Of a DNA stretch of 35,500 nt, positions 3,617 to 34,571 are shown in pieces. The stretch spans positions 1 through 35,500 of the forward strand of contig NZ_JACTVA010000052.1 of NCBI RefSeq assembly GCF_014490485.1. The letters are read 5' to 3'. The translations under genes and the position numbers were made by a program. Positions within the stretch are counted from its first letter, which is position 1. Each line of letters starts with the position of its first letter. The notes under the pieces are model-generated. The model did no database searches. It was not told where the DNA came from and worked only from the letters and a program-made list of their open reading frames with translations. The stretch comes from Teichococcus aerophilus (GTDB lineage Bacteria; Pseudomonadota; Alphaproteobacteria; Acetobacterales; Acetobacteraceae).

Positions 3617-3861
3617 AAGGCCGGGGAAAGAATTCCCCGGACCCCTTCTTTCTTCTTTCGAGTTTTTGCTGGTGTGGCTGTTGAGGGCGCGGACTTGAAA
3701 GAAGGTCGAGTGCGCCGGAGGTCTAGGACCTTCGGCGACTGACAGTTCAGCCCGCATGGCCATTTCAAATATAATTAGAGGCGTCCGCCCTCAGTCCTGC
3801 AGCGCTGCCCCAAACTCGAAGAAATAAAAGAAGGGGTCCGGGGAATTCTTTCCCCGGCCTT
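3617..3861 (+). repeat. Intergenic hairpin repeat, copy a (forward)
   Basis: This is a 245-bp copy bounded by AAGGCC and GGCCTT. The left arm hairpin is CCGGGGAAAGAATTCCCCGG and the right arm is CCGGGGAATTCTTTCCCCGG. The terminal inverted repeat extends inwards through the CCCCTTCTTT tract to CGAGTTT. The central hairpin (3713-3737) is an 11-bp stem with loop TAG, and one stem position is a G-T wobble. An AT-rich core follows GTTCAGCCCGC and TGGCCAT. The copy lies between the MAPEG stop and the M20 start and is the copy farthest from a stop codon. Confidence 0.9.
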
Positions 3862-3888
3862 CTCCCCTAACCCAATGCACCTCGAAAT

Positions 3889-3916
3889 GGCGCCTCCGTC
3901 CCCGGAGGTGGGCGCC
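3889..3916 (+). other. Hairpin upstream of the M20 gene
   Basis: GGCGCCTCC pairs with GGAGG and GGCGCC across a short loop, with a small bulge, about 80 nt upstream of the M20 start. It is followed by no U tract, so it is not an obvious terminator. It could be a 5'-UTR structure or simply chance in GC-rich DNA. Confidence 0.25.
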
Positions 3917-3996
3917 CTACCCGTCCTTACCTTCCCTGCCTTGACGCTGGCCCGCCCCGGCCGCACTCCCTCAGCACAGGTTGGAGGAGACGCCCC

Positions 3997-5427
3997 ATGC
4001 GCAACACGGAAGAGATCTGGCAGCACGTCGAGGCCAAGAAGGACGACTTCATCGCCTTGAGCGATCGCGTCTGGGGCATGCCGGAGTTGCTGTACGCCGA
4101 GTTCCGCTCCTGCGCCGAGCATGTGGAGATGCTGGAGCAGCAGGGTTTCGGCGTGACGCGGGACCTGGCCGGCATTCCCACCGCCATCATGGGCGAGGCG
4201 GGCGAGGAAGGTCCGGTCATCGCCATCCTGGGCGAGTATGACGCGCTGCCCGGCCTGAGCCAGGAGTCCGGCGTGGCCGAGCCGCGCCCGGTGGAGGCCG
4301 GCGGCCACGGCCATGGCTGCGGCCACAACCTGCTGGGCGCCGCCGCCCTCTTGGCCGCCACGGCCGTGAAGGACCACCTGGAGAAGAATGGCCTAAAAGC
4401 CCGCGTGCGCTACTACGGCTGCCCGGCCGAGGAAGGCGGCGCCGCCAAGACCTTCATGGCCCGCGCCGGCTGCTTCGACGATGTGGACGCCGCCATCACC
4501 TGGCACCCCTTCGCCTGGGCTGGCGTGCAGGAGGCGGATTCGCTGGCGAATACCCGCATCGACTTCACCTTCACCGGCCGGTCCAGCCACGCCGCGGCGG
4601 CGCCGCATCTGGGGCGCTCCGCGCTCGATGCCGTCGAGCTGATGAATGTCGGCGTGAACTACATGCGCGAGCATATGCCGAGCGACGCGCGCATCCACTA
4701 CGCCTACCTCAATGCCGGCGGCATCGCGCCCAACGTGGTGCAGGGCGAGGCCAAGGTGCGCTACGCCGTGCGCGCCCACACGCTGCACGAGATGTTCGGC
4801 CTGATCGAGCGGGTGAAGAAGATCGCCCAGGGCGCGGCGCTGATGACCGAGACGAAGGTGGAGATCAAGATCCTCTCCGCCGTGTCCAACCTGCTGGCCA
4901 ACACGCCGCTGGAGCAGGCCATGCACGACAACTTCATGCGCCTCGGCCCCGTGCCGTTCGACGATGAGGACCGGGAGTTCGCCCGCAAGATCCAGGCGAC
5001 GCTGACGCCGCAGGACATCGCCAGTAACTACAACCGCTCCGGCTTCAAGCCGCGCGCGGGGCAGGAATTCTGCGAGGCCATCCAGCCGCCGATCCCCGAG
5101 CGCAGCGGCGTACCGCAGCTGGGCTCCACCGATGTCGGCGACGTCTCCTGGGTCGTGCCGACGGTGCAGGCCAGCGGCGCGACGCTGGCCATCGGTACCC
5201 CGGCGCATTCCTGGCAGTGGACCGCGCAAGGCAAGATGCCGGCAGCCCATAAGGGCATGGTGCACGTGGCAAAGGCCATGGCCGGCACCGCCATCGACCT
5301 GATCGCCCGGCCGGAGCTGCTGGCCGCCGCGAAGGCCGACCTGGCCGCCCGCACGGCGGAGACGCCCTATGTCTGCCCGATCCCGGAAGACGTGGCACCG
5401 CCACTGAACATGGGCTCTGGGGTCTGA
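3997..5427 (+). CDS. M20 family amidohydrolase (AbgB-like)
   Basis: This is a zinc-dependent M20D amidohydrolase of 476 aa, close in length to E. coli AbgB (aminobenzoyl-glutamate hydrolase subunit). Relatives remove acyl groups from N-acyl amino acids or split amide bonds. Metal-site motifs are visible: GEYDALPG (79-86), GGHGHGCGHN (102-111), PAEEGG (143-148) and the dimerisation-domain motif TGRSSHAAAAPHLGRSALDA. There is no signal peptide, so it is cytoplasmic. A strong Shine-Dalgarno (GGAGGAG) supports this start. The gene ends in its own intrinsic terminator and then repeat copy b. It may work with the FMN monooxygenase and amino-acid ABC transporter on the other side of coaA, but that link is inferred. 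Confidence 0.9.
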   Translation: MRNTEEIWQHVEAKKDDFIALSDRVWGMPELLYAEFRSCAEHVEMLEQQGFGVTRDLAGIPTAIMGEAGEEGPVIAILGEYDALPGLSQESGVAEPRPVEAGGHGHGCGHNLLGAAALLAATAVKDHLEKNGLKARVRYYGCPAEEGGAAKTFMARAGCFDDVDAAITWHPFAWAGVQEADSLANTRIDFTFTGRSSHAAAAPHLGRSALDAVELMNVGVNYMREHMPSDARIHYAYLNAGGIAPNVVQGEAKVRYAVRAHTLHEMFGLIERVKKIAQGAALMTETKVEIKILSAVSNLLANTPLEQAMHDNFMRLGPVPFDDEDREFARKIQATLTPQDIASNYNRSGFKPRAGQEFCEAIQPPIPERSGVPQLGSTDVGDVSWVVPTVQASGATLAIGTPAHSWQWTAQGKMPAAHKGMVHVAKAMAGTAIDLIARPELLAAAKADLAARTAETPYVCPIPEDVAPPLNMGSGV

Positions 5428-5446
5428 CGCCTCCGCTCACAGAACA

Positions 5447-5475
5447 AAGCCTGGGGTCGTTCCCCGGCTTTTTTT
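5447..5475 (+). terminator. Intrinsic terminator of the M20 gene
   Basis: AAGCC-T-GGGG pairs with CCCC-GGCTT across a 5-nt loop with one bulged T, and the stem runs into seven consecutive T's (5469-5475). This is the clearest classical rho-independent terminator in the window. It lies 19 nt after the M20 stop codon and just before repeat copy b. Confidence 0.85.
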
Positions 5476-5494
5476 GTGTGATCTGTGAGAAAGG

Positions 5495-5740
5495 AAGGCC
5501 GGGGAAAGAATTCCCCGGACCCTATCTTCTTTTTTCGAGTTTTTGCCGGCGTGGCTGCTGGAAGGTTTGGCCTTCAGACACGGCTGGGTGCGCCGGAGGT
5601 CTGGGACCTCCGGCGACTGACGGTTCAGCCCGCGTGGCCCATTTCAAATATCATTAGAAGCGTCCGTCCTCAGTCCTGCAGCGCTGTCCCAAACTTGCAG
5701 AAAGAAAAGAAGGGGTCCGGGGAATTCTTTCCCCGGCCTT
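5495..5740 (+). repeat. Intergenic hairpin repeat, copy b (forward)
   Basis: This is a 246-bp copy between convergent genes, 67 nt after the M20 stop and 19 nt from the coaA stop. Both terminal arms have the CCGGGGAA/TTCCCCGG stem. The central 11-bp stem has loop TGG. It contains GTTCAGCCCGCGTGGCCCAT followed by the AT-rich core. The left pyrimidine tract is altered (CCCTATCTTCTTTTTT). Confidence 0.92.
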
Positions 5741-5759
5741 CCCTCCCGCAACCTCTGGA

Positions 5760-6695
5760 TCAGAAGCGGCGCAGCAGGACCTGGTCTGCCGCGTGGTCGG
5801 CGCGCTTGTGGACCACGACGTCGGCGCGCGGGCGGGTGGGCAGGATGTTCTCCTGCAGGTTGGGCAGGTTGATGGTTTGCCACAGCTTGATGGCGAAGGC
5901 CTGCGCTTCGTCGTCTGAGATCGCGGCAAGGTGGTGGAAGTAGCTGGCCGGGTTCTGGAACGCCGTGGCCTTCAGCAGCATGAAGCGGCGGATGTACCAT
6001 TGTTCGATATCGGCCGGCTCGGCATCGACATAGATGGTCAGGTCGAAGAAGTCCGTGGCCGTGTGGGTCGGGGTTGGCTTGCCCTCGGCCGCGCTGCCGA
6101 GTTGCAGGACGTTCAGTCCCTCGAAGATCAGGATGTCCGGGTGGCTGACGGTCTGCAGCACGTCCGGCAACGCATCGTAGGCCTGGTGGGAATAGACGGG
6201 CAGGCTGGCTTCCCCCGCTGTGCGGATGTCGGAGAGGAAGCGGATCATCCGCCGGACGTCGTAGCTTTCCGGGTAGCCCTTGCGCTGCATCAGGCCACGC
6301 GCCTGAAGCTCCTTCGTCGGGTAGATGAAACCGTCGGTGGCCACCAGGTCCACGCGCGGATGGTCCGGCCAGAGGGAGAGCAGCGTGCGCAGCAGCCGCG
6401 CCACCGTGCTCTTGCCCACCGCCACGCTGCCCGCGACCGCCACCACATAGGGCCGGCGCGCGGCGGGGCGGCCGACGAAATCATCCGCCACGCGCGCCAT
6501 GGTCCGGGTGGCGTTGACATGCAGGTTGATCAACCGCGTCAACGGCAGGAACACCTCCTCCACCTCCGCCATGGAAAGCGGCTCGCCCGTGGCGCGCAAC
6601 GCCTCCAGGTCACTCTCGACGAGCGGCATCGGCACGCTCGATCGCAGGCGCGCCCATTCGGCGCGGGTGAAAGCGGAATGGCTGGTCGTTTCCAT
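5760..6695 (-). CDS. coaA: Type I pantothenate kinase
   Basis: CoaA phosphorylates pantothenate with ATP, the first committed step of coenzyme A synthesis, in the cytoplasm. The protein is 311 aa, typical for the prokaryotic type I enzyme. The Walker A motif GSVAVGKST (89-97) follows VVAVA. Other family motifs include VDLVATDGFIYPTKEL, RKGYPESYDVRRMIRFL, YSHQAYD, DILIFEGLNVLQ and IYVDAEPADIEQWYIRRF. The C-terminal NLPNLQENILPTRPRADVVV is also characteristic. The gene is flanked by repeat copies b (3' side) and c (5' side) and appears to be transcribed alone. Confidence 0.97.
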   Translation of the reverse strand: METTSHSAFTRAEWARLRSSVPMPLVESDLEALRATGEPLSMAEVEEVFLPLTRLINLHVNATRTMARVADDFVGRPAARRPYVVAVAGSVAVGKSTVARLLRTLLSLWPDHPRVDLVATDGFIYPTKELQARGLMQRKGYPESYDVRRMIRFLSDIRTAGEASLPVYSHQAYDALPDVLQTVSHPDILIFEGLNVLQLGSAAEGKPTPTHTATDFFDLTIYVDAEPADIEQWYIRRFMLLKATAFQNPASYFHHLAAISDDEAQAFAIKLWQTINLPNLQENILPTRPRADVVVHKRADHAADQVLLRRF

Positions 6696-6812
6696 CCCTC
6701 GGCCTTAGAGCGGGACCGGCCAGGGTGGAAGCACCGATGCCACCTGCGCGGCGCGCCTTGGCGCCATGCTTCGGAGGCTTGGTGCGTGTCAGGCGGGGCG
6801 AAGGGTGCAGGC

Positions 6813-7054
6813 AGGCCGGGGAAAGAATTCCCCGGACCCCTTCTTTCTTTTTCGAGTTGTTGCTGGTGTGGCTGTTGGGCGCGCTGTCTTGAGAGACGGC
6901 TGGGCGCGCCGGAGGTCTAGGACCTCCGGCGACTGACGGTTCAGCCCGCGTGGCCCATATTAAGAATCATCAAGAACGTCCGCTCTCGGTCTTGCAGCGC
7001 CGCGCCAAACTCGCAGAAAAAAGAAGGGGTCTGGGGAATTCCTTCCCCAGCCTT
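6813..7054 (+). repeat. Intergenic hairpin repeat, copy c (forward)
   Basis: This is a 242-bp copy lying 45 nt from the stop of the FMN monooxygenase gene and 117 nt from the coaA start. Its left arm stem is CCGGGGAA/TTCCCCGG, but its right arm is CTGGGGAA/TTCCCCAG, a paired change that keeps the stem intact. The central stem is identical to the consensus, with loop TAG. The core reads CCCATATTAAGAATCATCAAG. Confidence 0.92.
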
Positions 7055-7099
7055 CCTTCTCCCCCGTCAAACGCCGCGCTGGACGGAAAACAGTCCCCC

Positions 7100-8419
7100 T
7101 CAGAATTCGCGAAGATTCTCGCGCAGGGTGGCGTGGGTGTAGCCGGTGCGGGTCAGGCCGCGGGCTTGCAGGGCGGGGATCAGGCCGTCGGCCACTTCGG
7201 CCACCACGCGGCGGCTGACATCGCCCATGGAGAACAGGAAGCCGTCGCCGCCGACTTCCTGCATCACTTCGTCCATCCGCGCGGCGATGGTTTCCACGGT
7301 GCCGCACAGGTCGACGGAGAGGCCGGTGCCGCTGTAGTCGGTGAAGGCCTGGCGGAGGGTCTTGCCGCCGGCGCCCATCTTCTTCAGCGTATCCAGGTTC
7401 TGTTGGTGGCCGTTGGTGCGGAGGCCTTCCTCGATCGGCTTGTCCAGGTCGAAGCTGGCGAAGTCGATGTTGGTCACCTTGCTGAAATGCGCCAGGCGCT
7501 GGGCGATCTTGGCATCGGCGTTGGCCAGGCGCTGCAGGCGGCGTTCCTCGGCGTGCTGGGCGCTTTCGCCGATGATGGGGTTCACCAGGAACAGCACTTT
7601 GATGTCGTCCGGGTTGCGGCCCATGGCGGCGGCGCGGGCGCGGATATCGTTGCGATAGGCCTTCATCGCCTCGATGCCCTTGGGGTTGGCGACGATGGTC
7701 TCGCCATGCGTCGCGGCGAATTGCCGGCCGCGGGCGGAGCCGCCTGCCTGCGCGATGACCGGCCGCCCCTGGATGCAGGGCCCGGAGTTGAGCGGGCCGC
7801 GGGAGCTGTACCACTGGCCTTTGAAGTCCACGCTGCGGACCTTGGTGTGGTCCACCAGCACGCCGCTCTCCCGGTCCGCCACCAGGGCGCCGGGTTCCCA
7901 CGAATCCCACAGGGCGTTGGCGCAGGCCATGTATTCGTCGGCCATGTCGTAACGCAGGTCGTGTTCTGGCAGGCCGTCCAGCCCGTAGTTGCGGGCGGCC
8001 ATGTCGCTGCTGCCCGTGACCATGTTCCACGCCGCGCGGCCGCCGGAGACCTGGTCCAGCGTCGCCATCATGCGGGCCAGGAGGTAGGGGTGGTGGGTGA
8101 AGGTGGCGAGGGTGGTGGCGACGCCGATATGCTTCGTCGCCGCGAAGAGCAGGGTGGAGACGATGGCGGGGTCCTGCCGCGGCACGGACAGGCCGTGCTT
8201 CAGGTAGATCTCGCGCGATCCGCCATAGGCTTCGCCGACATAGGAGCTGTCTTCGACCAGAATATAATCGAAGCAGGCGCGTTCCAGCGCCTGGGCCATG
8301 TCGATGAACAGGCTGGGGTACATCCACTCCCGGCCGATATTGCCGGTCCAGGGCTCACCCCAGGCCTGTACGCTGGAACCTTGCAGGAACCAGCCAAGAT
8401 GAAAAGGTCGTGCAGTCAT
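7100..8419 (-). CDS. NtaA/SnaA/DmoA-type FMN-dependent monooxygenase
   Basis: This is a 439-aa flavin-dependent monooxygenase of the bacterial luciferase-like superfamily, NtaA/DmoA branch. Such enzymes use FMNH2 from a separate reductase to cleave C-N or C-S bonds (nitrilotriacetate, dimethyl sulfide, modified cysteines). Visible features are the N-terminal FHLGWFLQGSSVQAWGEPWT, ATTLATFTHHPYLLARMMAT, DQVSGGRAAWNMVTG with S-(D/E)-M-AARN-(Y/F)-G next to it, and PVIAQAGGSARGRQFAA. The start at 8419 has GGAGG upstream. A longer in-frame ORF to 8590 runs into repeat copy d and is spurious. The amino-acid ABC genes lie upstream on the same strand, separated by repeat d. A Bacillus YxeK/YtnJ-like role on a sulfur amino acid is plausible but inferred. 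Confidence 0.92.
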   Translation of the reverse strand: MTARPFHLGWFLQGSSVQAWGEPWTGNIGREWMYPSLFIDMAQALERACFDYILVEDSSYVGEAYGGSREIYLKHGLSVPRQDPAIVSTLLFAATKHIGVATTLATFTHHPYLLARMMATLDQVSGGRAAWNMVTGSSDMAARNYGLDGLPEHDLRYDMADEYMACANALWDSWEPGALVADRESGVLVDHTKVRSVDFKGQWYSSRGPLNSGPCIQGRPVIAQAGGSARGRQFAATHGETIVANPKGIEAMKAYRNDIRARAAAMGRNPDDIKVLFLVNPIIGESAQHAEERRLQRLANADAKIAQRLAHFSKVTNIDFASFDLDKPIEEGLRTNGHQQNLDTLKKMGAGGKTLRQAFTDYSGTGLSVDLCGTVETIAARMDEVMQEVGGDGFLFSMGDVSRRVVAEVADGLIPALQARGLTRTGYTHATLRENLREF

Positions 8420-8563
8420 TCGTACGCCTCCGGTAGCGCGCCGGAGAGGCACGCGAATCTGGGCCGTGAATGAACAGGTCGTCCGCCTCCCGAGACGGTA
8501 GAGCGCTCTGGAGTGGCGCCGTTGTTCTTGGCGAGAGTTGTCCGGCAATGGGGCGGGGTTGGC

Positions 8564-8822
8564 AAGATTGGGGGGAATGAATTCCCCCAAACCCCCCTTC
8601 TTTTTCTTCCTTGGTGTTTTTCGGGTGTGGCTGTTGTGGCGTTGCGCCTTGGTCAGACGAACGGGTTGCGCCGAGGGACGGAGTTCCCCGGCGACTGCGG
8701 GTTCAACTCGTGTGGCCTGTTTTATTCATAAAAGGCTGCTGATCCCGTGCACCGCTCCGGCCCGGAAGCCCGAACCCGGAGAAAGAAGAAGGGGGCCTGG
8801 GGGAATTCATTCCCCCAGCCTT
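8564..8822 (+). repeat. Intergenic hairpin repeat, copy d (forward, diverged)
   Basis: This is a 259-bp diverged copy, 14 nt from the stop of the downstream permease gene. The arms have switched to a longer stem: the right arm is CTGGGGGAA/TTCCCCCAG and the left is a TTGGGGG/CCCCCAA stem with one bulged G. The inward tracts have changed in step, to CCCCCCTTCTT and AAGAAGGGGG. The central hairpin is weakened but still recognisable (CGCCG...CGGCG). GGTTCAACTCGTGTGGCC precedes an AT-rich core. Confidence 0.8.
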
Positions 8823-8836
8823 ACATCCCCAAAGTA

Positions 8837-9511
8837 TCAGCCCCGCCCCGCCATCGCCTTGTTCTCCAGCCGCGACATCAGCCGCACCAGCGGCCACAGC
8901 AGCAGGAAATACGCCACCGCCGCCGCGACGATGGGGGAGGCGTTGTAGGTGACGTTCTGCGCCTGCCGCGCCTGGAACAGCAGTTCCGGCAGCGCCACGA
9001 CGCTGGCGATGGAGGTGAGCTTCACCACTTCCACGGTGTTGGAGATCAGGTCCGGCATCACGTTGCGCACGGCCTGCGGCAGCACGACGAAGGCCAGGGT
9101 CTGCGCCTGGGAGAGGCCGGTGGAGCGGGCGGCCTCGGTCTGGCCGCGTGGCACGCTGTCGATGCCGGCGCGCAGCACTTCGCCGTAATAGGCGCCGGTG
9201 TTGAGGAAGAAGCCGATGGCGACGGCGCCCCAGGCGCCGACATCCAACCCGGCGAAGGGCAAGCCGGCATAGAGGAATACCAGCAGCACCAGTGGCGGGA
9301 TGGCGCGGAACAGATCCACCCAGCCCGCGGCCAGGATACGCACCCAACGCAGCGGTGCGGTGGAGAGCAGGGCGAGGATGACGCCGCCGATCAGCCCCAG
9401 CGGCACCACCATGACGGCCAGCAGCAGCGTCTGCCACAGCCCGCGCCACAGGATGGGCGAGGCCTGGCTGATGATATCCAGGTTGAGGAAGGCTTGTACG
9501 AAATCGTCCAT
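8837..9511 (-). CDS. Polar amino-acid ABC transporter permease (second)
   Basis: This is an inner-membrane permease of the HisM/GlnP family, 224 aa, with about five hydrophobic helices. The ABC-interaction (EAA) region is visible as TEAARSTGLSQAQTLAFVVL followed by PQAVRNVMPDLISNTVEVVK. It is the last gene of a three-gene operon (ATPase, permease, permease) and starts 7 nt after the preceding stop codon, with GAGG upstream. It presumably forms a heterodimer with the product of 9519-10199. No binding-protein gene is adjacent. Substrates of this family are polar or sulfur-containing amino acids such as cystine. Confidence 0.93.
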   Translation of the reverse strand: MDDFVQAFLNLDIISQASPILWRGLWQTLLLAVMVVPLGLIGGVILALLSTAPLRWVRILAAGWVDLFRAIPPLVLLVFLYAGLPFAGLDVGAWGAVAIGFFLNTGAYYGEVLRAGIDSVPRGQTEAARSTGLSQAQTLAFVVLPQAVRNVMPDLISNTVEVVKLTSIASVVALPELLFQARQAQNVTYNASPIVAAAVAYFLLLWPLVRLMSRLENKAMAGRG

Positions 9512-9518
9512 GGGAACC

Positions 9519-10199
9519 TCAGCGCTTCCAGGCGAAGCGCGATTCGACCCAACGGCCGAAGGCGACGACGGGGATGAACAGGACCAGATAGGCGATCGCC
9601 CCCAGCATCAGCGGCGACGGGTTGGCCGAGAAGGACATCGCGCTCTGCGACGCGCCAAGGATCTCGGACACGCCGACGACCGAGCCGAGCGCCGTGCCCT
9701 TGGTGATGGCGATGGTACGGTTGGTCAGCGGCGGGATGGTGATGCGCAGCGCCTGCGGCACGACGACGTGGCGCAGCGTCTGCGTGAAGGTGAGGCCGGT
9801 GGAGCGGGACGCCTCCCACTGCCCTTTGTGGACGGAGGTGAGGCCGGCCCAGAAGATTTCCTCCGAGAAGGCCATCAGCACCAGGGTGAGGGAGAGCCAG
9901 GTGGCGGCGAAGCCGGAGAGGCCGAGCCCGGCGGCCGGCAGGCCGAAGAACAGCAGCACGATGATGACCAGCGGCGGCAGCGCGCGGAACAGGTCCACCA
10001 CGAAGATGATCAGCCAGTTCAGCGGCCGGATACCGAAGCTGCGCACCAGTGCCAGCGCCAGGCCGGAGGCGAGGCCGGCGACGACGATGAGCACCGCCAG
10101 CCACACGGTCAGGACGAAGCCCTGCGCGATCTGCGGCAGGTATTGCGCCATCACCTTCATGTTCAGGAAGGAGAAGGCGAAGTTCTCGAAGCCGGTCAT
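9519..10199 (-). CDS. Polar amino-acid ABC transporter permease (first)
   Basis: This is a 226-aa inner-membrane permease of the HisM/GlnP family. The EAA-type loop is visible as QWEASRSTGLTFTQTLRHVV then PQALRITIPPLTNRTIAITK, and several hydrophobic helices are clear, including FVLTVWLAVLIVVAGLASGL. The start codon is 2 nt beyond the ATPase stop codon, so translation is probably coupled. It works with the neighbouring permease and ATPase as an amino-acid importer. Confidence 0.93.
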   Translation of the reverse strand: MTGFENFAFSFLNMKVMAQYLPQIAQGFVLTVWLAVLIVVAGLASGLALALVRSFGIRPLNWLIIFVVDLFRALPPLVIIVLLFFGLPAAGLGLSGFAATWLSLTLVLMAFSEEIFWAGLTSVHKGQWEASRSTGLTFTQTLRHVVVPQALRITIPPLTNRTIAITKGTALGSVVGVSEILGASQSAMSFSANPSPLMLGAIAYLVLFIPVVAFGRWVESRFAWKR

Positions 10200-10201
10200 G
10201 G

Positions 10202-10957
<756 letters not shown>

Positions 10958-14112: not shown

Positions 14113-14119
14113 CGGGGCG

Positions 14120-18447: not shown

Positions 18448-19611
18448 GTGGCGCCGCTGCTCATCTTCCTGCTGGTGGTCTTCGTGCTGCCGATCGGCAC
18501 GTTCCTGGCCCGCGCGGTGCAGGAGAGCGACGTGCCGCCCGTCCTGCCGCGCACCATCGCCGCGCTCTCCGGCTGGGATGGCGCGGCGGCGCCGGGCGAG
18601 CCGGCCTTCGCCGCACTTGTCGAAGACCTGCGCGAGGCGCGGCGGCGGGACCAGGAGGCCGGGGGCGGCAGCATCGGCCGTGCCTCCGCCCGGCTGAACA
18701 ATGACTGGCCGGGCTTCCGCAGCCTGCTGCCCGCCACCGCCCGCCGCATCGCCAGCCCGTTCCAGGGCGAGGCCCGCGCCGCCGTGCTGGCCGCCGCGCC
18801 GGAATGGGGCGAGGTGGCGCCCTGGGCCGCCATCAGCCGCGCCGGCGGCCCGCTTTCCGACTTCCACCTGCTGGCGGTGCTGGACCTGAAGCGCGATGCC
18901 GCAGGCCATATCGCCGCCGCGCCGCCGGACCAGTCCATCTTCCGCGCCGTGCTGTGGCGGACGATGTGGATCTCGCTCTGCGCCACCGTGCTGGCGCTGG
19001 CCATCGGCTACCCGCTGGCCTGGCTGATCGCCACCGCGCCTTCACGCTTCGCGCCCTGGCTGCTGGCCGGCGTGCTGCTGCCGTTCTGGACCAGCCTGAT
19101 CGTCCGCACCGCCGCCTGGATGGTGCTGCTGCAGCGGGAGGGCGTGGTGAACGCCACGCTGCAATCACTGCGCCTGGCGGACGGGCCGCTGCCGCTGCTG
19201 TTCAATCGCGGCGCCGTGCTGCTGGCCATGGTGCACATCCTGCTGCCGTTCATGGTGCTGCCCATTTACGCCAACCTGAAGGGGATGGACTGGCGGCTGC
19301 CGCGCGCGGCGATGTCGCTCGGCGCCTCCCCGCTCCGCACCTTCTGGCGGATTTCGCTGCCGCTCTCCCTGCCCGGCATCGGTGCCGGCAGCCTGCTGGT
19401 GTTCATCCAGGCGCTGGGCTTCTACGTCACCCCGGCCCTGCTGGGCGGCGCCAACGACCAGATGCTGTCCTATTTCGTCGGCTTCTACGCCACGCGCACC
19501 GTCAACTGGTCGATGGCCGCGGCGCTGTCCTGCCTGCTGCTGGCGGCGGTGGCCATCGTCGTCGCGCTGTATGCCAGGCTGGTCGGCTTCGAGAAGACGA
19601 GGCCCGCATGA
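18448..19611 (+). CDS. ABC transporter permease, PotB-like
   Basis: This is a 387-aa inner-membrane permease of the PotB/PotH type. After the first helix (LLIFLLVVFVLPIGTFLARA) comes a long periplasmic segment of roughly 130 residues, then helices 2-6. The cytoplasmic EAA-like loop reads AAMSLGASPLRTFWRISLPL. The start is uncertain. GTG at 18448 is the first standard start after the binding-protein stop but lacks a good Shine-Dalgarno. The frame is open upstream and would add KNKLTAAALV if a CTG overlapping the previous stop codon (18418) were used. Its stop overlaps the next gene's ATG. Confidence 0.9.
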   Translation: MAPLLIFLLVVFVLPIGTFLARAVQESDVPPVLPRTIAALSGWDGAAAPGEPAFAALVEDLREARRRDQEAGGGSIGRASARLNNDWPGFRSLLPATARRIASPFQGEARAAVLAAAPEWGEVAPWAAISRAGGPLSDFHLLAVLDLKRDAAGHIAAAPPDQSIFRAVLWRTMWISLCATVLALAIGYPLAWLIATAPSRFAPWLLAGVLLPFWTSLIVRTAAWMVLLQREGVVNATLQSLRLADGPLPLLFNRGAVLLAMVHILLPFMVLPIYANLKGMDWRLPRAAMSLGASPLRTFWRISLPLSLPGIGAGSLLVFIQALGFYVTPALLGGANDQMLSYFVGFYATRTVNWSMAAALSCLLLAAVAIVVALYARLVGFEKTRPA

Positions 19612-20387
19612 CGGCATCCCGCATCTCGCTCTGGGTGTTCGGCATCCTGGCGCTGGCCTTCCTGCTGGCGCCGGTGCTGGTGATCCTGCCGCTCTCCTTC
19701 TCCGCCGGGTCGTTCCTGTACTACCCGCTGCCGGGGCTCTCGCTGCGCTGGTACCAGGATTTCCTCACCTCGGATTTCTGGCTGCCGGCGCTGTGGAACA
19801 GCCTGCGCCTGGGCGCCGCCACCGCCATCCTGGCCGGCGGGCTGGGCACGCTGGCGGCCTTCGGCCTGTGGAGCGCCCGCTTCCCCGGCCGGCAGGCCGT
19901 GATGGCGGTGCTGATGGCGCCGATGGTGGTGCCGGCCATCGTCGTCGCCGTGCCGCTGCTGCTGGCCTTCGGGCCGCTGGGGCTGACCAACAGCTTCTGG
20001 GGGCTGCTGCTGGCGCATACGGTGCTGGGCGCGCCCTTCGTCGTCGTCACGGTGCTGGCCGCGCTGGCGCAGTTCGATGCGGTGCAGCTGCGCGCGGCGG
20101 CGGCCTGCGGCGCCTCCCCCACCCGCGCCTTCCTGCGCGTGTGCCTGCCGCAGATCGCCCCCGGCGTCGCGGCCGGTGCGGTGTTCGCCTTCGCCACCAG
20201 CCTGGACGAGGTGGTGGTGGTGCTGTTCCTGGCCGGGCCGGCGCAACGCACCCTGCCGCGCCAGATGTTCTCCGGCATGAGCGATTCCATCAGCCTGACC
20301 GTGATGGCGGCAGCGATGGTGATGGTGGTGCTGTCCTGCCTGCTGCTGCTGGCGGTGACGCTGCTGCGCCGGGGGCAGAAGGCCTGA
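19608..20387 (+). CDS. ABC transporter permease, PotC-like
   Basis: This is a 259-aa permease of the PotC/PotI type with six predicted helices. The EAA loop reads RAAAACGASPTRAFLRVCLP, followed by AFATSLDEVVVVLFLAGPAQ and TLPRQMFSGM, which are very typical of PotC. The start codon overlaps the upstream permease stop (ATGA). It completes an operon of binding protein and two permeases. No ATPase gene is present before repeat copy e, which begins 15 nt after the stop, so the energising subunit must come from another locus. Confidence 0.95.
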   Translation: MTASRISLWVFGILALAFLLAPVLVILPLSFSAGSFLYYPLPGLSLRWYQDFLTSDFWLPALWNSLRLGAATAILAGGLGTLAAFGLWSARFPGRQAVMAVLMAPMVVPAIVVAVPLLLAFGPLGLTNSFWGLLLAHTVLGAPFVVVTVLAALAQFDAVQLRAAAACGASPTRAFLRVCLPQIAPGVAAGAVFAFATSLDEVVVVLFLAGPAQRTLPRQMFSGMSDSISLTVMAAAMVMVVLSCLLLLAVTLLRRGQKA

Positions 20388-20402: not shown

Positions 20403-20649
20403 AAGGCCGGGGAAGGAATTCCCCGGGCCCCTTCTTTTCTTTCTGCGAGTTTGGCGAAGCGCTTTAGGACTGAAAGCGGGCGCTGCTTGATGATTTTAAT
20501 CATGGGCCACGCGGGCCGAATCCTCAGTCGCCGGAGGTCCTAGACCTCCGGCGCACCCAGCCACCGATCAAGCCCAGCCCACCAACAGCCCCGCCCGGAA
20601 AATTCGCGAAAAGAAAAGAAGGGGCCCGGGGAATTCTTTCCCCGGCCTT
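20403..20649 (-). repeat. Intergenic hairpin repeat, copy e (reverse)
   Basis: This 247-bp copy is in the opposite orientation to a-d, beginning 15 nt after the permease stop. The arm flanks have changed in step on both sides (CCCCGGGCCCC at the left and GGGGCCCGGGG at the right). The central 11-bp stem has loop CTA. The AT-rich core, read in forward sense, is GTGGCCCATGATTAAAATCA. The remaining roughly 275 nt up to the SOD gene hold a small hairpin and no gene. Confidence 0.92.
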
Positions 20650-21759: not shown

Positions 21760-22047
21760 AAGGCCGGGGAAGGAATTCCCCGGGTCCCATCTTCCTTTTT
21801 CGAGTTTCGATAGCGGGTGTCGTTGGCTTCAGGAACCGCCAGGATTGAGCTTGAGGCCGAGCACTCTTAGCGATAGGGGGGCTCAGCCCGCGCAGATTTT
21901 ATAGTCAGCAACGTGTCTCTTTAAGACGGCGTGCGGCTTTGAGTGCGACAGAGGCCCGCCTCAACATCCGGGCTGACTTTTCCGACTGAAGCCCCACCCA
22001 AACTCGCAGAAAAAAGAAGGGGTCCGGGGAATTCTTTCCCCGGCCTT
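21760..22047 (+). repeat. Intergenic hairpin repeat, copy f (forward, variant interior)
   Basis: This is a 288-bp copy between convergent genes, 64 nt after the SOD stop and only 4 nt before the J-protein stop codon. The terminal arms are canonical. The interior is mostly different: the central 11-bp stem is missing, though GGCTCAGCCCGCGCAGATTT recalls the conserved segment before the AT-rich core. It is a useful case for separating end function from interior function. Confidence 0.82.
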
Positions 22048-27761: not shown

Positions 27762-27774
27762 TCCCAGCCGGCCG

Positions 27775-28203: not shown

Positions 28204-28436
28204 CGTCTTCTCCTGCTTGGCAGCCCGCGCGGTTGTCCGCCCGGGGTCACGCCGTGCGGCGCGTACCCCGCTATGTTCGGTGCCGGACGGTGCAGCACAA
28301 GGGGGACATGCGTTCACCGCCGCGCGCGGGCTGCGCGGCAGCAGGAGGACCGGCGCCCTTTGGGCCACGGACCGTGGACGTGGGGACCGGGGGCGCCAAG
28401 GCGGCCTTGGCCTGGTGACGCGAGCGGAGGGCGGGG

Positions 28437-28685
28437 AAGGCCGGGGAAAGAATTCCCCGGAACCCTTCTTTTCTTTTTTCGAGTTTTTGCGGGCTCGTCT
28501 GTTGAGATGTGGAGCCTGAAAAAAGCCGCTGGGTGCGCCGGAGGTCTAGGACCTCCGGCGACTGAGGGCTCAGCCCCGGCGGACCATTTTAAATATCATC
28601 AAGCAGCGTTCGCCCTCAGTCCCGAAGCGTGACGCCAAACTCGCAGAAAAAAAGAAGGGGTCCGGGGAATTCTTTCCCCGGCCTT
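28437..28685 (+). repeat. Intergenic hairpin repeat, copy g (forward)
   Basis: This is a 249-bp copy, 23 nt from the MOSC gene stop and 233 nt from the ohr start. Both arms and the inward tracts are canonical, and the terminal inverted repeat runs about 48 nt. The central 11-bp stem (28536-28560) is perfect, with loop TAG. The core reads ACCATTTTAAATATCATCAA. Confidence 0.93.
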
Positions 28686-28708
28686 CTCTTCCACCCGCAT
28701 GCGCCCTG

Positions 28709-29248
28709 TCAGACCTTCTGCAAAGCCCGGTGCGGCAGGGGTGGCAGGATTGCTTGCAGGGTGTCCCCTGCGCGGATCGTGCCGCCGGCCAGGACGATGC
28801 CCATGATGCCGGCCTTCCGCACCACCTGCCCGGCGGCGTCGCGCCCCAGCAGGGCGCGCATCAGGCCGGGGCGGAAGCTGTCCAGCTGGGTGCATGGGTT
28901 GCGCAGGCCGGTGACTTGCACGACCGCGCTGTCGCCCAGCCGCAGCTGGGTGCCTTCGGGCAGGGCGAGCAGGTCGAGTCCGCTCGTGGTGACGTTCTCG
29001 CCAATGTCGCCCGGCTGCAGGGCGAAGCCCTGGGCGCGCAGCTCGTCCAGCATTTCCTGGTGCAGCAGGTGCACTTGCCGCAGGTTCGGCTGGGTGGGGT
29101 CGGCCCGCACGCGGGAACGGTGCTTCACCGTCTCCCCGGCATGGGCATCGCCTTCCACGCCCAGCCCGGCCAGCAGGGTGATGCTGCCGCAACCGGCCTT
29201 GCTGAAGCCATGCACCGCACTGCGCGCGACGGCCAGGATATGGGGCAT
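28709..29248 (-). CDS. MOSC domain protein
   Basis: This is a 179-aa protein made of a single MOSC domain, the C-terminal domain of molybdenum cofactor sulfurase, also found in YiiM-type reductases and small stand-alone proteins. The conserved cysteine is in VTGLRNPCTQLD (Cys119). Other family features are GLGVEGDAHAGETVKHRSRV and LQPGDIGENVTTSGLDL. A GGAGAT ribosome-binding site supports the start at 29248. Stand-alone MOSC proteins probably carry sulfur or metal-sulfur groups; no molybdenum gene is nearby to refine the role. Repeat copy g lies just after the stop codon. Confidence 0.92.
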   Translation of the reverse strand: MPHILAVARSAVHGFSKAGCGSITLLAGLGVEGDAHAGETVKHRSRVRADPTQPNLRQVHLLHQEMLDELRAQGFALQPGDIGENVTTSGLDLLALPEGTQLRLGDSAVVQVTGLRNPCTQLDSFRPGLMRALLGRDAAGQVVRKAGIMGIVLAGGTIRAGDTLQAILPPLPHRALQKV

Positions 29249-29396
29249 CGGCGTATCTCCGCTGTTCACGGCACGGGTCGTCGCATGGGGCGGCGGGGGG
29301 CGAAAAGGCCGATTCCGATGCGGGCGGACGATCGGGCAGACGGGCCCCGCCGCCATCCGCATCGGGGTGGCGGCGGATGCGGACCAGTGGCGTGGA

Positions 29397-30782
29397 TCAT
29401 CCGGCCCCGGTCAGCGCGGGGTCTTGCGGGGCCTGCTCCTGGGGGGCGGGCAGCGCGGCCTCCTCCAGCTCCACCGACTCGATGCGGCCGCCGCGGCGGA
29501 CGATCTTGTCGGTGCTGATCTCGATGTCGCGGATGTCCTTCTGCGCCTGGTCGAAATGCTTCTTCAGGCTGTTCACCCGGCCGTCCAGGCGGCTGACATC
29601 CTCCACCAGCCGCACCACCTCTTCCTGGATGCGGCCGGCCTGGGCGCGCATCCGCACGTCCTGCATCAGCGCCCGCATGGCGGAGAGCATGGCCCACAGC
29701 GTGGTGGGCGAGGCGATGTAGACCCGGCGCCGCTGTGCATCGTCCACCACGCCGGCAAAGCCGGTATGCAGTTCCGCGAAGATGGCTTCGGACGGCACGA
29801 ACATGATGGCGGCTTCCGCCGTCTCCCCCGCGATCAGGTATTTCTGCGAGATGTCGTCCACATGCTTTTTCATGTCGGCGGAGAAGCGGCGGGTGGCGAT
29901 GGTGCGGGCGCCGACATCCTCGCCCGCCTCCCGCAGCGCCTGCCAGGCCTCCAGCGGGAACTTGCTGTCCACCACCACCGGGCCGGGCGGGTGCGGCAGC
30001 TTGATCAGGCAATCGCAGCGCGTGCCGTTGGAGAGGACATGCTGCCAGGAGAAGCCATCGGCCGGCAGCCGGTCCTCGATCAACTGGCGCAACTGCATCT
30101 CGCCGAAGGCGCCGCGCGACTGCTTGTTGCCGAGGATGCCGGCCAAATTGGTCACCTGGCTGCCCAGCGCTTCCATGTTCTGCCGGGCGGCGTCGATCAC
30201 CGCCAGGCGCTCATGGATCTGCCCGGCCGTCTCCTGCGCCTTCTGGGCGGAATCGGCCAGGATGCGGGCCAGCTTCTCGTTCTGCGCGGCCAGCGCGGCA
30301 TCCAGGCGCTCATTCTGCGCCGACACCGCCTTGGCCATCATCTCGGAGGACGCGCCCAACCGCTCGTTCTGCGCCGCCAGCGCCTGGGTCAGCGTCTCGC
30401 TGAGGGAGAGGGTGGCACCGGCCATCCGCTCGTTCTGCGCCAGCAATGCCGCATTCAGCGCCTGGGCAGACGCCGAGAGCCGGTCGGCGGTCTCCAGCCG
30501 GTCCTGCGCCATGCGCTGGTTCTGCGCCGCCAGCGCATCGTCCAGCCGGCGGGCGCTGCCCTCCAATCGCTCGGCCAGGGCGCGGTCCTGCTGCGCCAGG
30601 CGGTCCAGCGTCGTGCCGGCCAGCCGTTCCTGCGTCGCGGCGAGGGATTCCAGCTTGCCGGCCAGCATGGCGAAAGCCTCGGTGGCACCGCCGCCCTGGG
30701 CAGGCCGCCGCAAGGCCAGGACCACCAGCAGCACCACGAGGAACGCCCCGAGACCGACCAGCAGCAGCACATTCTCAGACAT
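29397..30782 (-). CDS. rmuC: DNA recombination protein RmuC
   Basis: RmuC is a membrane-anchored coiled-coil protein with a restriction-endonuclease-like domain that limits inverted-repeat recombination. This protein is 461 aa, in the family range. It has an N-terminal membrane helix (VLLLVGLGAFLVVLLVVLAL) and a long coiled coil over about residues 35-190. The conserved domain follows, with LGNKQSRGAFGEMQLRQLIE, VVVDSKFPLEAWQALREAGE and SPTTLWAMLSAMRALMQDVR. The coiled coil carries five AQN(E/Q)(R/K)(L/M) motifs spaced 29, 22, 18 and 11 residues apart, which fits 7- and 11-residue coil periods. The gap to the MOSC gene has no repeat copy. Confidence 0.95.
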   Translation of the reverse strand: MSENVLLLVGLGAFLVVLLVVLALRRPAQGGGATEAFAMLAGKLESLAATQERLAGTTLDRLAQQDRALAERLEGSARRLDDALAAQNQRMAQDRLETADRLSASAQALNAALLAQNERMAGATLSLSETLTQALAAQNERLGASSEMMAKAVSAQNERLDAALAAQNEKLARILADSAQKAQETAGQIHERLAVIDAARQNMEALGSQVTNLAGILGNKQSRGAFGEMQLRQLIEDRLPADGFSWQHVLSNGTRCDCLIKLPHPPGPVVVDSKFPLEAWQALREAGEDVGARTIATRRFSADMKKHVDDISQKYLIAGETAEAAIMFVPSEAIFAELHTGFAGVVDDAQRRRVYIASPTTLWAMLSAMRALMQDVRMRAQAGRIQEEVVRLVEDVSRLDGRVNSLKKHFDQAQKDIRDIEISTDKIVRRGGRIESVELEEAALPAPQEQAPQDPALTGAG

Positions 30783-30857
30783 TGATCACTCTTTGTTCCA
30801 GGCCTGGGAGAATCCTCGCCTTGGGACGGGGGCGCAAGGGGGATGATCTCAGGGGTA

Positions 30858-31243
30858 AAGGTCGGGGGAAGGAATTCCCCCGAACCCCCATCTTTTTCTG
30901 CGCGTTTTTGGTTTGTGGGGTGGAGGGAGGCGCTCTGGGGCATAGGGCTGGGTGGGGCCCAGGTGCGTGGCCAGCCAAGGAGCGGCGTGGGGCGCCGCAT
31001 CCTCGTGCAGTGGCCCGGATCGGTACGGTGCAGATTTTTTTGAAAAATTTGGAAGGGCTGAGGGGGTTCGCTGAGGCCCCGGGCCTCGTCAGAACAGCAG
31101 AGGTGTCGGGCCTAACCTCGACCCGGATGCCCATCCCCGGCTTCCAGCCATCTCAGGCCAACATTCCACGGAATGCCCCAACCCAGACCCGAAAACTCGC
31201 AGAAAAAAGATGGGGGCCTGGGGGAATTCCTTCCCCCAGCCTT
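30858..31243. repeat. Intergenic hairpin repeat, copy h (ends only, unrelated interior)
   Basis: This is the longest copy (386 bp), 19 nt from the purH stop. The arms have the longer stem variants TCGGGGGAA/TTCCCCCGA and CTGGGGGAA/TTCCCCCAG. The inward tracts match each other (CCCCCATCTTTTT and AAAAAAGATGGGGG). The interior of roughly 290 nt shows no clear relation to the other copies, and the central 11-bp hairpin is absent, so orientation cannot be assigned. It contains a short run of T's and A's around 31030-31050. Confidence 0.75.
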
Positions 31244-31262
31244 CACCACCAGCGGCCAGGCC

Positions 31263-32840
<1,578 letters not shown>

Positions 32841-33003
32841 GGGCGGAGTCACCTTCCGAAGCCGGGTGGCATTGTCGGCGCCGGGATAGACCTTCGCGCC
32901 CCATTGCTCAACCAGAGGCGGTGCAAGGCAGCCCCGCCCTGCCTTCGCCCGGCCTCGCCCTGGGGCTGGGGCTGGGGCTGGGGCCGGTGGTTGGGTTCAG
33001 GCG

Positions 33004-33246
33004 AGGCCGGGGAAGGAATTCCCCGGCCCCTTCTTTTTTCTGCGAGTTTGGCGTGGCGCTGCAGGACTGAGAGCGGACGCTGCTTGAAGATTTTAATCAT
33101 GGGCCACAAGGGGCGAACCGTCAGTCGCCGGAGGTTCAGAACCTCCGGCGCACCCAGCCGTCTCCGGAACCACCCGCCCAACAGCCCCGCCCGAAAAACT
33201 CGAAAAAAGAAAAGAAGGGGCTCCGGGGAATTCCTTCCCCGGCCTT
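33004..33246 (-). repeat. Intergenic hairpin repeat, copy i (reverse)
   Basis: This is a 243-bp copy in reverse orientation, 11 nt from the esterase stop. Arms are canonical. The central stem (33126-33150) is CGCCGGAGGTT-CAG-AACCTCCGGCG, where both strands of the last base pair have changed relative to the other copies (C-G to T-A), preserving the 11-bp stem. The core in forward sense is GTGGCCCATGATTAAAATCT. Confidence 0.93.
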
Positions 33247-33257
33247 CCCCCCTGTCT

Positions 33258-34169
33258 TCAGGCCAGGAACGCGAAGGGCACCGCCCGCCCGGCCGCCGCG
33301 GCGCGGACGCTGCCATGGTTCTCGCCGACGAATTCCTGCACCTCCAGCGCGCCGAAGCGGCCCGGCAGGGCGTGCAGCCGCTCGGCCAGTTCCCGCACGT
33401 TGTCACCCATGATGCGGCGCTGGCCGCCCGGCGGCACGACGGTTCCATCCGGCCGCAGCCGTCCTTCCAGCGAGCCGAAGGTCATCAGCAGCCGGGGCGG
33501 GGCGCCATGTGGGGCGGGGTGGGCGGCGAAGGACTCGGCTTCCCGCAGCAGCACGCCACCGCCCCACCAGATGGAGGGGCTGGCGGCCAGGTAGGTGGAG
33601 AAGCTCTGCGTACGGGTGAACAGCGCGTGCAGGGCGAACAGCCCGCCATAGGAGTGGCCGAACAGCGCCCGCCGGGCGGGGTCGATCCGGAAGGCAGCCT
33701 CCACCAGCGGCCGCAGCTCATGCTCGATCACCGCCAGCAGGGCATCGGCCCCGCCATGGCGGCCGCGCACCTCGCTGAAGCCCTCGGGCACCGGCAGGGT
33801 GTATTCGAAGTCCCGCCGCGCTTCCTCCGTATCGTCCAGCGGGAAGTCGATGGCCACGATCACCCCCTGCGACGCATCCGGCAGGAAGCGGCAGGCGCCG
33901 GTCAGCACCTCGAACATCGCGTTGCCATCCAGCGCGTAGAGCACGGGCCAGCCGGCCTCCGGCACCTCGCCCGGCGGCCAGGAGAGCAGGACGCGGTAGC
34001 GGCGGCCGTTGCGGGCCGTCAGCGACCATTCCTCCGCCCGGGCCAGGGCGAACGGCACGCGCCCGGGCAACGCCGCCGCGCGGGCCTCCGGGCCAACCAG
34101 CAGCGCCAGGCCCGCCAGGCCACCACCCAGCACGTGCCGCCTGCCGGGCCGTGTCTCACCATGCCGCAT
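33258..34169 (-). CDS. Tat-exported alpha/beta-hydrolase, siderophore-esterase-like
   Basis: This is a 303-aa esterase D/BesA-like alpha/beta hydrolase. Relatives hydrolyse trilactone siderophores or simple esters. The nucleophile is Ser173 in FGHSYGGLFALHALF, followed by the family's AASPSIWWGGG and the C-terminal catalytic histidine in VGENHGSV. The N-terminal domain shows PVLYALDGNAMFEVLTGA. A twin-arginine-type signal (RRHVLGGGLAGLALLVG) suggests a periplasmic enzyme. The ATG at 34169 has GGAG six nt upstream; two more in-frame ATGs at 34184 and 34181 lack one. There is no siderophore or TonB gene nearby, so the substrate is unclear. It is flanked by copies i and j. Confidence 0.9.
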   Translation of the reverse strand: MRHGETRPGRRHVLGGGLAGLALLVGPEARAAALPGRVPFALARAEEWSLTARNGRRYRVLLSWPPGEVPEAGWPVLYALDGNAMFEVLTGACRFLPDASQGVIVAIDFPLDDTEEARRDFEYTLPVPEGFSEVRGRHGGADALLAVIEHELRPLVEAAFRIDPARRALFGHSYGGLFALHALFTRTQSFSTYLAASPSIWWGGGVLLREAESFAAHPAPHGAPPRLLMTFGSLEGRLRPDGTVVPPGGQRRIMGDNVRELAERLHALPGRFGALEVQEFVGENHGSVRAAAAGRAVPFAFLA

Positions 34170-34328
34170 TGTGCGCTCCATCATCCGTCCCGCCGGTCAG
34201 TGAGCCAAAGCGAGGAAGAAGAAAAGCTCGGGAGAGTTTCCGGCCTTCCCTTCCGGCAGATGGGGCGGAAGGCGAGGCGCGCATCCCCATCGCCGCCCTC
34301 GGTTGTGACGGGGTCTGGTAGGGCGGAA

Positions 34329-34571
34329 AAGCCGGGGAAAGAATTCCCCGGACCCCTTCTTCTCTTCTGCGAGTTTGGCGAAGCGCTTCAGGACTGAGAG
34401 CGGGCGCTGCTTGATGATATATAAAATGGGCCACAAGGGCTGAACCGTCAGTCGCCGGAGGTCCAGGACCTCCGGCGCACCCAGCCGTGTCTCAAGCGCA
34501 CCCGCCCAAAGGCCCGCCCTCAAACTCGAAAAAAGAAAAGAAGGGGCCCGGGGAATTCCTTCCCCGGCCTT
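34329..34571 (-). repeat. Intergenic hairpin repeat, copy j (reverse)
   Basis: This is a 243-bp copy in reverse orientation, 15 nt from the stop of the last hydrolase gene and 159 nt from the esterase start. Arms are canonical. The central 11-bp stem has loop CAG. The core in forward sense is GTGGCCCATTTTATATATCA. Confidence 0.93.

What the first reader, a model, noticed from the sequence alone, without database searches (positions are those of the whole stretch)
3617..34571. A ten-copy family of structured intergenic repeats with hairpin terminal inverted repeats
Seen in the sequence: copies at 3617-3861, 5495-5740, 6813-7054, 8564-8822, 20403-20649, 21760-22047, 28437-28685, 30858-31243, 33004-33246 and 34329-34571. 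Each is bounded by inverted repeats of roughly 45-50 nt: AAGGCC, a GAATTC-centred hairpin (stem CCGGGGAA/TTCCCCGG), CCCC, a TTCTTT tract and CGAGTTT. Eight of ten also carry a central 11-bp-stem hairpin (degraded in d) and an AT-rich core after GTGGCCCAT. There is no transposase and no clear target-site duplication. The family is larger than REP units, is end-symmetric like a MITE, and makes up about 7% of the window. I know of no named element with this structure, but I could not search.
Basis: seen in the sequence. Interest (0 to 1): 0.85.

Follow-up and report, generated by a model that had tools for sequence, protein, structure and literature searches.

The report
Genus-wide spreading twin transcription-terminator repeat
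The ten repeats belong to a family of several hundred copies in this bacterium whose two hairpin ends look like stop signals for transcription parked just after genes, and the family seems to have been gained and lost at gene ends as related species diverged.

Summary
In detail: ten copies, inward-facing hairpin ends, no target-site duplication. The genome holds 925 such hairpins (up to 1 mismatch), an estimated 450 elements. The MITE/RAYT reading is not supported. Each end is best read as a stereotyped intrinsic terminator: GC stem, C-run, T-tract. In contiguous stretches elements occupy 20 of 40 convergent, 17 of 111 tandem and 1 of 42 divergent intergenic regions; in tandem contexts the near end lies a median 25 nt after a stop codon. 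Compensatory changes support each end's own hairpin (34 double-change cells against 4 in shuffles); end-to-end pairing has little support (33 against 31.5). In fetched relatives the unit occurs singly or as shorter inward pairs; 26 of 39 read out of a gene end 35 nt or less away. The unit after purH is kept in 6 of 6 species; at six other window sites none was found in five relatives. It occurs in 16 of 102 sampled family genera; one congener has none. No Y1 (RAYT/IS200) transposase was found in this genome. How it spreads is unknown; termination was not measured, and a simple terminator scan gave no excess. Closest known: uptake-sequence terminators and REP/BIME repeats. I found no description in the papers searched.

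The parts
3617..3861 (+). copy 0; 113 nt after a + gene (3132-3503), 135 nt before the next + gene
   Evidence: no unit within 450 nt of the orthologous anchors in 5 relatives (in G007 the middle ~120 nt of a 1,019-nt gap was not scanned)
5495..5740 (+). copy 1; between convergent genes: 67 nt after the M20-peptidase-like gene (3997-5427, +) and 19 nt from the end of 5760-6629 (-)
   Evidence: a paired unit lies at the same 3' end in 3 of 5 relatives
6813..7054 (+). copy 2; 45 nt after the - gene 7100-8323
   Evidence: no unit in 3 of 3 relatives with an anchor, right side only
8564..8822 (+). copy 3 (5-G stem variant, degraded central hairpin); 14 nt after the - gene 8837-9511
   Evidence: no unit in 5 relatives, some with one anchor only
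20403..20649 (-). copy 4; 15 nt after the + gene 19608-20387
   Evidence: absent in 5 of 5 relatives
21760..22047 (.). copy 5, unrelated interior; between convergent genes, 64 nt and 4 nt from their ends
   Evidence: unit present in 1 of 5 relatives (G007); GC-rich inverted repeats of other sequence are visible there by eye in G006, G001, G002
28437..28685 (+). copy 6; 23 nt after the - gene 28709-29248
   Evidence: no unit in 5 relatives, two of them with one anchor only
30858..31243 (.). copy 7, 386 bp, unrelated interior, 5-G stems; its right end lies 19 nt after the end of purH (31263-32840, -)
   Evidence: a unit whose stem starts 16-26 nt after the purH stop in this genome and 5 of 5 relatives, with 2 mismatches to the motif in G006
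33004..33246 (-). copy 8; 11 nt after the - gene 33258-34133
   Evidence: absent in 5 of 5 relatives
34329..34571 (-). copy 9; 15 nt after the - gene 34587-35318
   Evidence: absent in 5 of 5 relatives
28437..28486 (+). typical end unit: AAGG, stem CCGGGGAA/TTCCCCGG, second C-run, T-tract, CGAGTTT tail; reads as an intrinsic terminator into the element
28637..28685 (-). the opposite end unit, same design, facing inward; it reads out of the adjacent - gene's 3' end
28536..28560 (+). central 11-bp hairpin of the interior; conserved, with only weak compensatory support

Best explanation
The element is a dispersed double terminator. Each end is a near-identical ~50-nt intrinsic-terminator unit: purine-rich AAGG, a GC stem-loop, a second C-run that with AAGG can extend the stem, then a T-tract. 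The two units face inward, so transcription entering from either flank should stop inside the element. Between convergent genes it would serve both; between tandem genes it would stop the upstream gene and shield the spacer from antisense readthrough. The 245-bp version in this species encloses a ~150-bp interior that spread with the ends. Shown: sequence, position, orientation bias, compensatory change in each end hairpin, single units at gene ends in relatives, occupation of one orthologous 3' end where 11 congeners folded have an unrelated hairpin, and presence or absence between species. Inferred: that RNA polymerase really terminates there, and that copies spread by an unidentified copying process and persist mainly downstream of genes because there they are harmless or useful.
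For: Position: in contiguous own stretches, elements lie in 20/40 convergent, 17/111 tandem and 1/42 divergent intergenic regions of at least 30 nt. In 1.02 Mb, 143 elements: 69 convergent, 61 tandem, 10 divergent, 3 at a stretch edge, 0 inside genes; in tandem contexts the near 3' end is at a median 25 nt (IQR 19-48), the next start at 136 nt. Of 31 solitary own units, 25 read out of an adjacent gene end; of 39 units fetched from relatives, 26 do so at 35 nt or less. Structure: double-change cells in the end hairpins of 90 copies, 34 vs 4.1 shuffled, 0/500; across species 52 vs 13.3, 0/500. Two of four typed units fold as a stem running directly into the T-tract. In AT-5844 the eight copies fetched by similarity carry a different but still paired stem base pair; a ninth, picked by a pattern that required the other pair, does not. 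Conservation: a unit 16-26 nt after the purH stop in 6/6 species. Replacement: after a T7-like capsid gene, of 17 congeners 2 carry the paired unit (G003, G012), 1 (G004) a partial one, 14 no unit; 11 of those 14 were folded and each forms a hairpin. Six of six pattern-found viral-collection contigs carry a pair after the same gene.
Against: No expression data. A simple terminator scan found no excess over shuffles in the window (12 vs 8.7, 7 vs 9.0) and listed 5 of the 20 hairpins, 4 of them read outward and only 1 inward; the units may work outward too, or poorly. The T-tract is interrupted by C and starts about 5 nt after the stem unless the AAGG/CCTT extension forms; in two of four typed units the predicted fold does not run into a free T-tract. 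Six of 31 solitary own units and 10 of 39 units from relatives do not read out of an adjacent gene end, and the annotated plasmid copy faces against its upstream gene. Ten of 143 elements are between divergent genes. End-to-end pairing is not at zero: some measures exceed shuffles slightly. Termination explains neither the conserved tail nor the second end between tandem genes. Rho is present, so its loss does not explain the expansion. Gene ends come from my own caller; on the one annotated stretch its stop positions agreed with the annotation.
Confidence: 0.72

Rival explanations
1. A classical MITE: a non-autonomous DNA transposon whose terminal inverted repeats are bound by the transposase of an (absent or unseen) full-length element; position near gene ends is only where insertions are tolerated.
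For: Terminal inverted repeats of ~45-50 nt, hundreds of copies, species-specific presence, shared ends around different interiors, a weakly conserved tail beyond the T-tract.
Against: No TSD in 65 elements; the two longer inward pairs in 1.02 Mb hold no transposase; end-to-end double changes 33 vs 31.5 shuffled; the end unit occurs alone after stop codons in relatives; a unit kept at an orthologous 3' end.
Confidence: 0.2
2. A REP/REPIN (BIME) system moved by a RAYT or other IS200-like Y1 transposase acting on hairpins.
For: Two inverted palindromes make the unit; palindromic, intergenic, high copy.
Against: PF01797: 0 in the own genome; 1 weak, partial match in 19 genomes. No GTAG or CGTC tag beside the stem in the consensus. 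Little support for end-to-end pairing.
Confidence: 0.04
3. A DNA-uptake-signal-like or other DNA-binding site that happens to be palindromic, with termination as a by-product, as with uptake-sequence terminators in Neisseria and Pasteurellaceae.
For: Known precedent in convergent regions (PMC1852404, passages); hundreds of near-identical words.
Against: Solitary units were not found in genes (0 of 31); the conserved unit is ~50 nt and asymmetric with a T-tract; the outer stem pairs drift with compensation, unlike a fixed protein-binding word, although the inner GGGGAA/TTCCCC is nearly fixed.
Confidence: 0.06
4. A structured non-coding RNA family.
For: Conserved central hairpin and interior; strong predicted folding of the consensus (no shuffle control).
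Against: No Rfam match; central hairpin double changes 3 vs 1.1 shuffled, 41/500; the two leading covarying pairs are in the end hairpins; inward terminators would block transcription from outside.
Confidence: 0.05

Closest known systems
DNA-uptake-sequence terminators of Neisseria and Pasteurellaceae (PMC1852404, passages)
   Same: A stereotyped repeated word forms intrinsic terminators in large numbers, enriched between convergent genes.
   Different: There the stem is made of two copies of a 9-11 nt uptake word; here the unit is a ~50-nt asymmetric hairpin plus T-tract, its outer stem drifts with compensation, and it occurs as inward pairs with a shared interior.
REP / BIME / REPIN repeats (PMC3733652, passages; REPIN from recall and the PMC8049555 listing)
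   Same: High-copy intergenic palindromes, often as inverted pairs.
   Different: No GTAG/CGTC tag, no RAYT found in the genome, the ends carry T-tracts, little support for pairing between the two palindromes.
Bacterial MITEs (recalled; PMC10969869 listing)
   Same: Short, terminal inverted repeats, many copies, no coding capacity seen.
   Different: No TSD, no related transposase found in the part examined, ends also occur singly and as pairs about 60-200 nt apart.
Ordinary intrinsic (Rho-independent) terminators (recalled)
   Same: Stem, T-tract, distance from stop codons, compensatory stem change.
   Different: Ordinary terminators in one genome do not share a 40-50 nt sequence in hundreds of copies or come as a 245-bp repeat.

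Membership tests
Intrinsic (Rho-independent) terminator | GC-rich hairpin followed directly by a T-rich tract | tested here: inconclusive
   Stem and T-tract present, but the T-tract abuts the stem only with the AAGG/CCTT extension (2 of 4 units folded so), and the simple scan found no excess in the window, with 4 of 5 listed hairpins read outward
Intrinsic (Rho-independent) terminator | Lies shortly after stop codons, oriented with the gene; rare between divergent genes | tested here: met
   exceptions: 6 of 31 solitary own units, 13 of 39 units from relatives not within 60 nt of a gene end they read out of (10 not reading out of one at all)
Intrinsic (Rho-independent) terminator | Stem maintained by compensatory change | tested here: met
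   cells are not independent events
Intrinsic (Rho-independent) terminator | Transcripts end in the T-tract | not testable with these tools
   No RNA data
MITE | Terminal inverted repeats | tested here: met
MITE | Target-site duplication | tested here: not met
   0 of 65 for 3-10 nt; direct repeats at other offsets not clearly above mismatched flanks
MITE | Ends shared with a transposase-bearing element | tested here: inconclusive
   Two longer inward pairs in 1.02 of 5.66 Mb, neither with a transposase
REP/RAYT (REPIN) | Y1 transposase in the genome | tested here: not met
   PF01797: 0 in G000, a 99.9% complete draft
REP/RAYT (REPIN) | GTAG or CGTC tetranucleotide beside the palindrome | tested here: not met
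   Consensus and flank composition, by inspection
DNA-uptake-sequence terminators | Short word also frequent singly and in genes; guides uptake | not tested
   Only the whole unit was located; no uptake data
Rfam families | Match at gathering score | tested here: not met
   0 of 4227 families in the window

The most novel reading that the evidence does not exclude
A mobile terminator: a self-propagating sequence whose transposable unit is itself a functional transcription terminator. It invades gene 3' ends and displaces the resident terminator hairpin, without transposase-type target duplication, perhaps through hairpin-guided strand exchange or gene conversion, and thereby rewires where a whole genus stops transcription.
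Probability: 0.3. Interest if true: 0.85.

Novelty: new variant of a known kind. Interest (0 to 1): 0.62.

Why it matters
Terminators are usually thought of as evolving in place. Here one stereotyped unit occupies half of the convergent junctions in the contiguous stretches sampled, is kept at some orthologous gene ends and present or absent at others. Because congeners range from zero to over 700 exact hairpins, the genus offers a natural experiment on how terminators turn over and whether a repeat family can supply a genome-wide transcription-stop system. The inward double design could also be useful as an insulator.

Tried and rejected
Target-site duplication and insertion into palindromes: flanks of 65 elements tested against mismatched flanks; no TSD, no significant excess of flank complementarity (permutation p 0.075-0.75; exact complementary words of 8-9 nt in 6 elements against about 3 expected), although copies 4 and 9 at first looked like insertions into hairpin loops.

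RAYT/IS200: PF01797 not found in the genome. Loss of Rho as a reason for the expansion: Rho found in 16 of 18 genomes, including this one and the unit-free congener. Nested elements as precise empty sites: no uninterrupted paralogue found in the sample. A long-range end pair as an autonomous element: two in the sample, one with a polysaccharide-deacetylase-like gene, one without a called gene. Orientation preference in tandem contexts: none, 25 vs 20 with 16 untyped. Plasmids: one record; phage records: no match. The one genome-contig scan used a pattern that was too strict and returned a single locus.

Not done: structure prediction, and a model search for the interior.
Full report
What is there. 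Each is flanked by an inward-facing unit: AAGG, a stem of the type CCGGGGAA/TTCCCCGG closed by a 4-nt loop, a second C-run, a T-rich tract and a CGAGTTT-like tail. The motif with up to two mismatches occurs 20 times in the window and never in 10 dinucleotide shuffles. Eight interiors are related, three of them reversed; the copies at 21760 and 30858 have other interiors. All ten lie next to a gene 3' end: two between convergent genes, eight between tandem genes, none between divergent ones (gene calls).

How many. This genome (5.66 Mb) holds 465+460 hairpins with up to one mismatch; the reversed-pattern control is 0. In 355 kb of contiguous stretches 82 hairpins correspond to 40 complete pairs, so I estimate about 450 elements, some 2% of the genome; the window is about 3.5 times denser than that average. 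These stretches were taken from contigs that one search listed as having hits, not at random. Among 91 related full-length copies the median pairwise identity is 0.81 and the maximum 0.94, so no burst in the sample is very recent.

Who else has it. The exact stem-loop pattern is in 16 of 17 genomes of the genus (this one included), from 13 hairpins (in a 71% complete genome) to 728; G008 has none. It is in 2 of 17 other genomes of the family drawn there and in 0 of 24 others of the class. A covariance model of the end unit matches 47 of 299 family genomes in 16 of 102 genera (own genus included), with at most 19 candidates scored per genome and strict filters; G008 again has none. Full-length copies appear in this genome and in G006, with one diverged near-full-length match (72%) in G013; only 40 candidates per genome were scored and the list is cut. 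A Pseudoroseomonas cervicalis plasmid carries at least one unit.

Where it sits. I called genes with a codon model of my own; on the one annotated stretch its stop positions agree with the annotation. In contiguous stretches, 20 of 40 convergent, 17 of 111 tandem and 1 of 42 divergent intergenic regions of at least 30 nt carry an element. In the larger, partly copy-centred sample of 1.02 Mb, 143 elements split 69 convergent, 61 tandem, 10 divergent, 3 at an edge, none in a gene. In tandem contexts the near gene end is a median 25 nt away and the next start 136 nt. Solitary units read out of a neighbouring gene end in 25 of 31 cases, at 8-525 nt. Of 39 units in the stretches fetched from G007, G009, G013, G016 and G027, 26 read out of a gene end 35 nt or less away, 3 out of one further than 60 nt and 10 out of none. 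They occur singly (mostly in G016) or as inward pairs about 60-200 nt apart. These stretches were chosen around known hits.

What is maintained. In 90 copies, end-hairpin pairs show 34 cells changed on both sides against 4.1 in shuffles, with four pair types at one position; the count of further pair types is less striking (13 vs 11.2, 32/500). The two strongest covarying column pairs of the whole element are the second stem pair of the right end and of the left end. Pairing between the two ends shows 33 double-change cells against 31.5 (273/500). Other measures of that call lie a little above shuffles: pairs with a double change 15 vs 9.0 (2/500), further pair types 54 vs 44.7 (0/500), covariation score 0.084 vs 0.076 (0/500); shared ancestry of the two ends could give this. 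The central hairpin shows 3 against 1.1 (41/500). Across species the unit shows 52 against 13.3. So selection, or exchange of whole units, keeps each hairpin far more clearly than the foldback of the whole element. Cells count sequences and not independent events, and subfamilies of end units are shared.

Turnover. At the ten window sites, up to five relatives were examined where anchors could be placed. The unit after purH (copy 7) is kept with its stem 16-26 nt from the stop in all six species. Copy 1's site has a pair in 3 of 5 relatives and copy 5's in 1 of 5. Copies 0, 3, 4, 6, 8 and 9 have none within 450 nt of the anchors in 5 relatives (copies 3 and 6 with one anchor only in some), and copy 2 none in 3. 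In G007 the copy-0 gap is 1,019 nt, so its middle 120 nt were not scanned.

An informative orthologous site. Six viral-collection contigs found by pattern carry paired units and turned out to hold a T7-like structural module; the pair follows the major capsid gene in 6 of 6, which is where T7 has its main terminator (recalled). The capsid gene is found in 17 of 17 genomes of the genus and in G027, so this is probably a vertically kept chromosomal module and not proof of a phage using the unit. Directly after that gene two congeners (G003, G012) have the paired unit and one (G004) a partial one; the other 14 have none. I folded 11 of those 14, and G027: each forms a hairpin, z -1.4 to -4.2 against shuffles, with -1.4 in G008 and G015. 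Among 78 of 80 related loci in the viral collection with a downstream region, 18 have a unit with up to 2 mismatches there; these include the contigs and loci identical there to some of the genomes.

Mechanism. The most economical account is that each end works as an intrinsic terminator and that the double unit therefore stops transcription from both sides. The typical unit folds as GAGAGAAGG-CCGGGGAA/TTCCCCGG-ACC-CCTTCTTTTC with the T-tract following at once; of four unit sequences folded two do this, one keeps a gap and one pairs up its T-tract. Against it, the simple terminator scan gives no excess in the window and lists 5 of the 20 hairpins, 4 of them in the outward direction, so an outward or two-way action is possible. 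Not explained by termination alone: the weakly conserved tail, the second end between tandem genes, and the equal lengths of the stem G-run and the second C-run (5-5-5 in 25 and 4-4-4 in 14 of 49 units). The spreading process is unknown: no TSD, no Y1 transposase found, no autonomous relative in the 1.02 Mb examined.

Literature. Passages read: PMC1852404 (uptake-sequence terminators), PMC3733652 (GTAG/CGTC repeats), PMC2267715 (stem-loop families), PMC12306157 (it reports 1,369 REPs in Lichenicola cladoniae, also Acetobacteraceae, without describing them in the passages I saw). Searches that listed no description of this family; only open-licence papers are held, and long result lists were seen in part.

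Verdict. Observation confirmed; MITE/RAYT reading not supported; best read as a dispersed double intrinsic terminator with presence and absence at gene ends that differs between species of a genus. It is a new variant of known kinds (repeat-derived terminators, palindromic repeats).

Noticed in passing
L158:1-12957 and L153-L157, L240-L257: A T7-like podovirus structural module (connector, scaffold, capsid, tail tubes, terminase) of about 12-13 kb in the viral collection; its capsid gene is found in 17 of 17 genomes of the genus and in G027, so it may be domesticated (gene-transfer-agent-like).
   Followed up: partly
L120:7888 and 8012, L122:9096, L134:2590-2848, L099:14340, L138:4083-4337: Palindromes of about 18-20 bp (centres such as GTATAC or CTATAG) sit between stem and T-tract of some units, with different sequences in different species.
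   Followed up: no
units of relatives; L225, L230, L234 after the capsid gene: The second C-run has the same length as the stem G-run: 5-5-5 in 25 and 4-4-4 in 14 of 49 units, 6-6-6 in diverged family members. It may reflect two subfamilies; no explanation.
   Followed up: partly
L128:1890-2010, L129:1780-1860, L130:2280-2380: In G013 the central core of the interior occurs without recognisable terminator ends beside it, as if it were a repeat of its own.
   Followed up: no
G008: One congener of 4.5 Mb shows no unit by exact pattern or by the covariance model, although the other congeners searched do.
   Followed up: partly
L038:3140-3760: One element lies inside another; the interior flanking the inner copy forms an inverted repeat by eye. 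No uninterrupted paralogue was found in the sample.
   Followed up: partly
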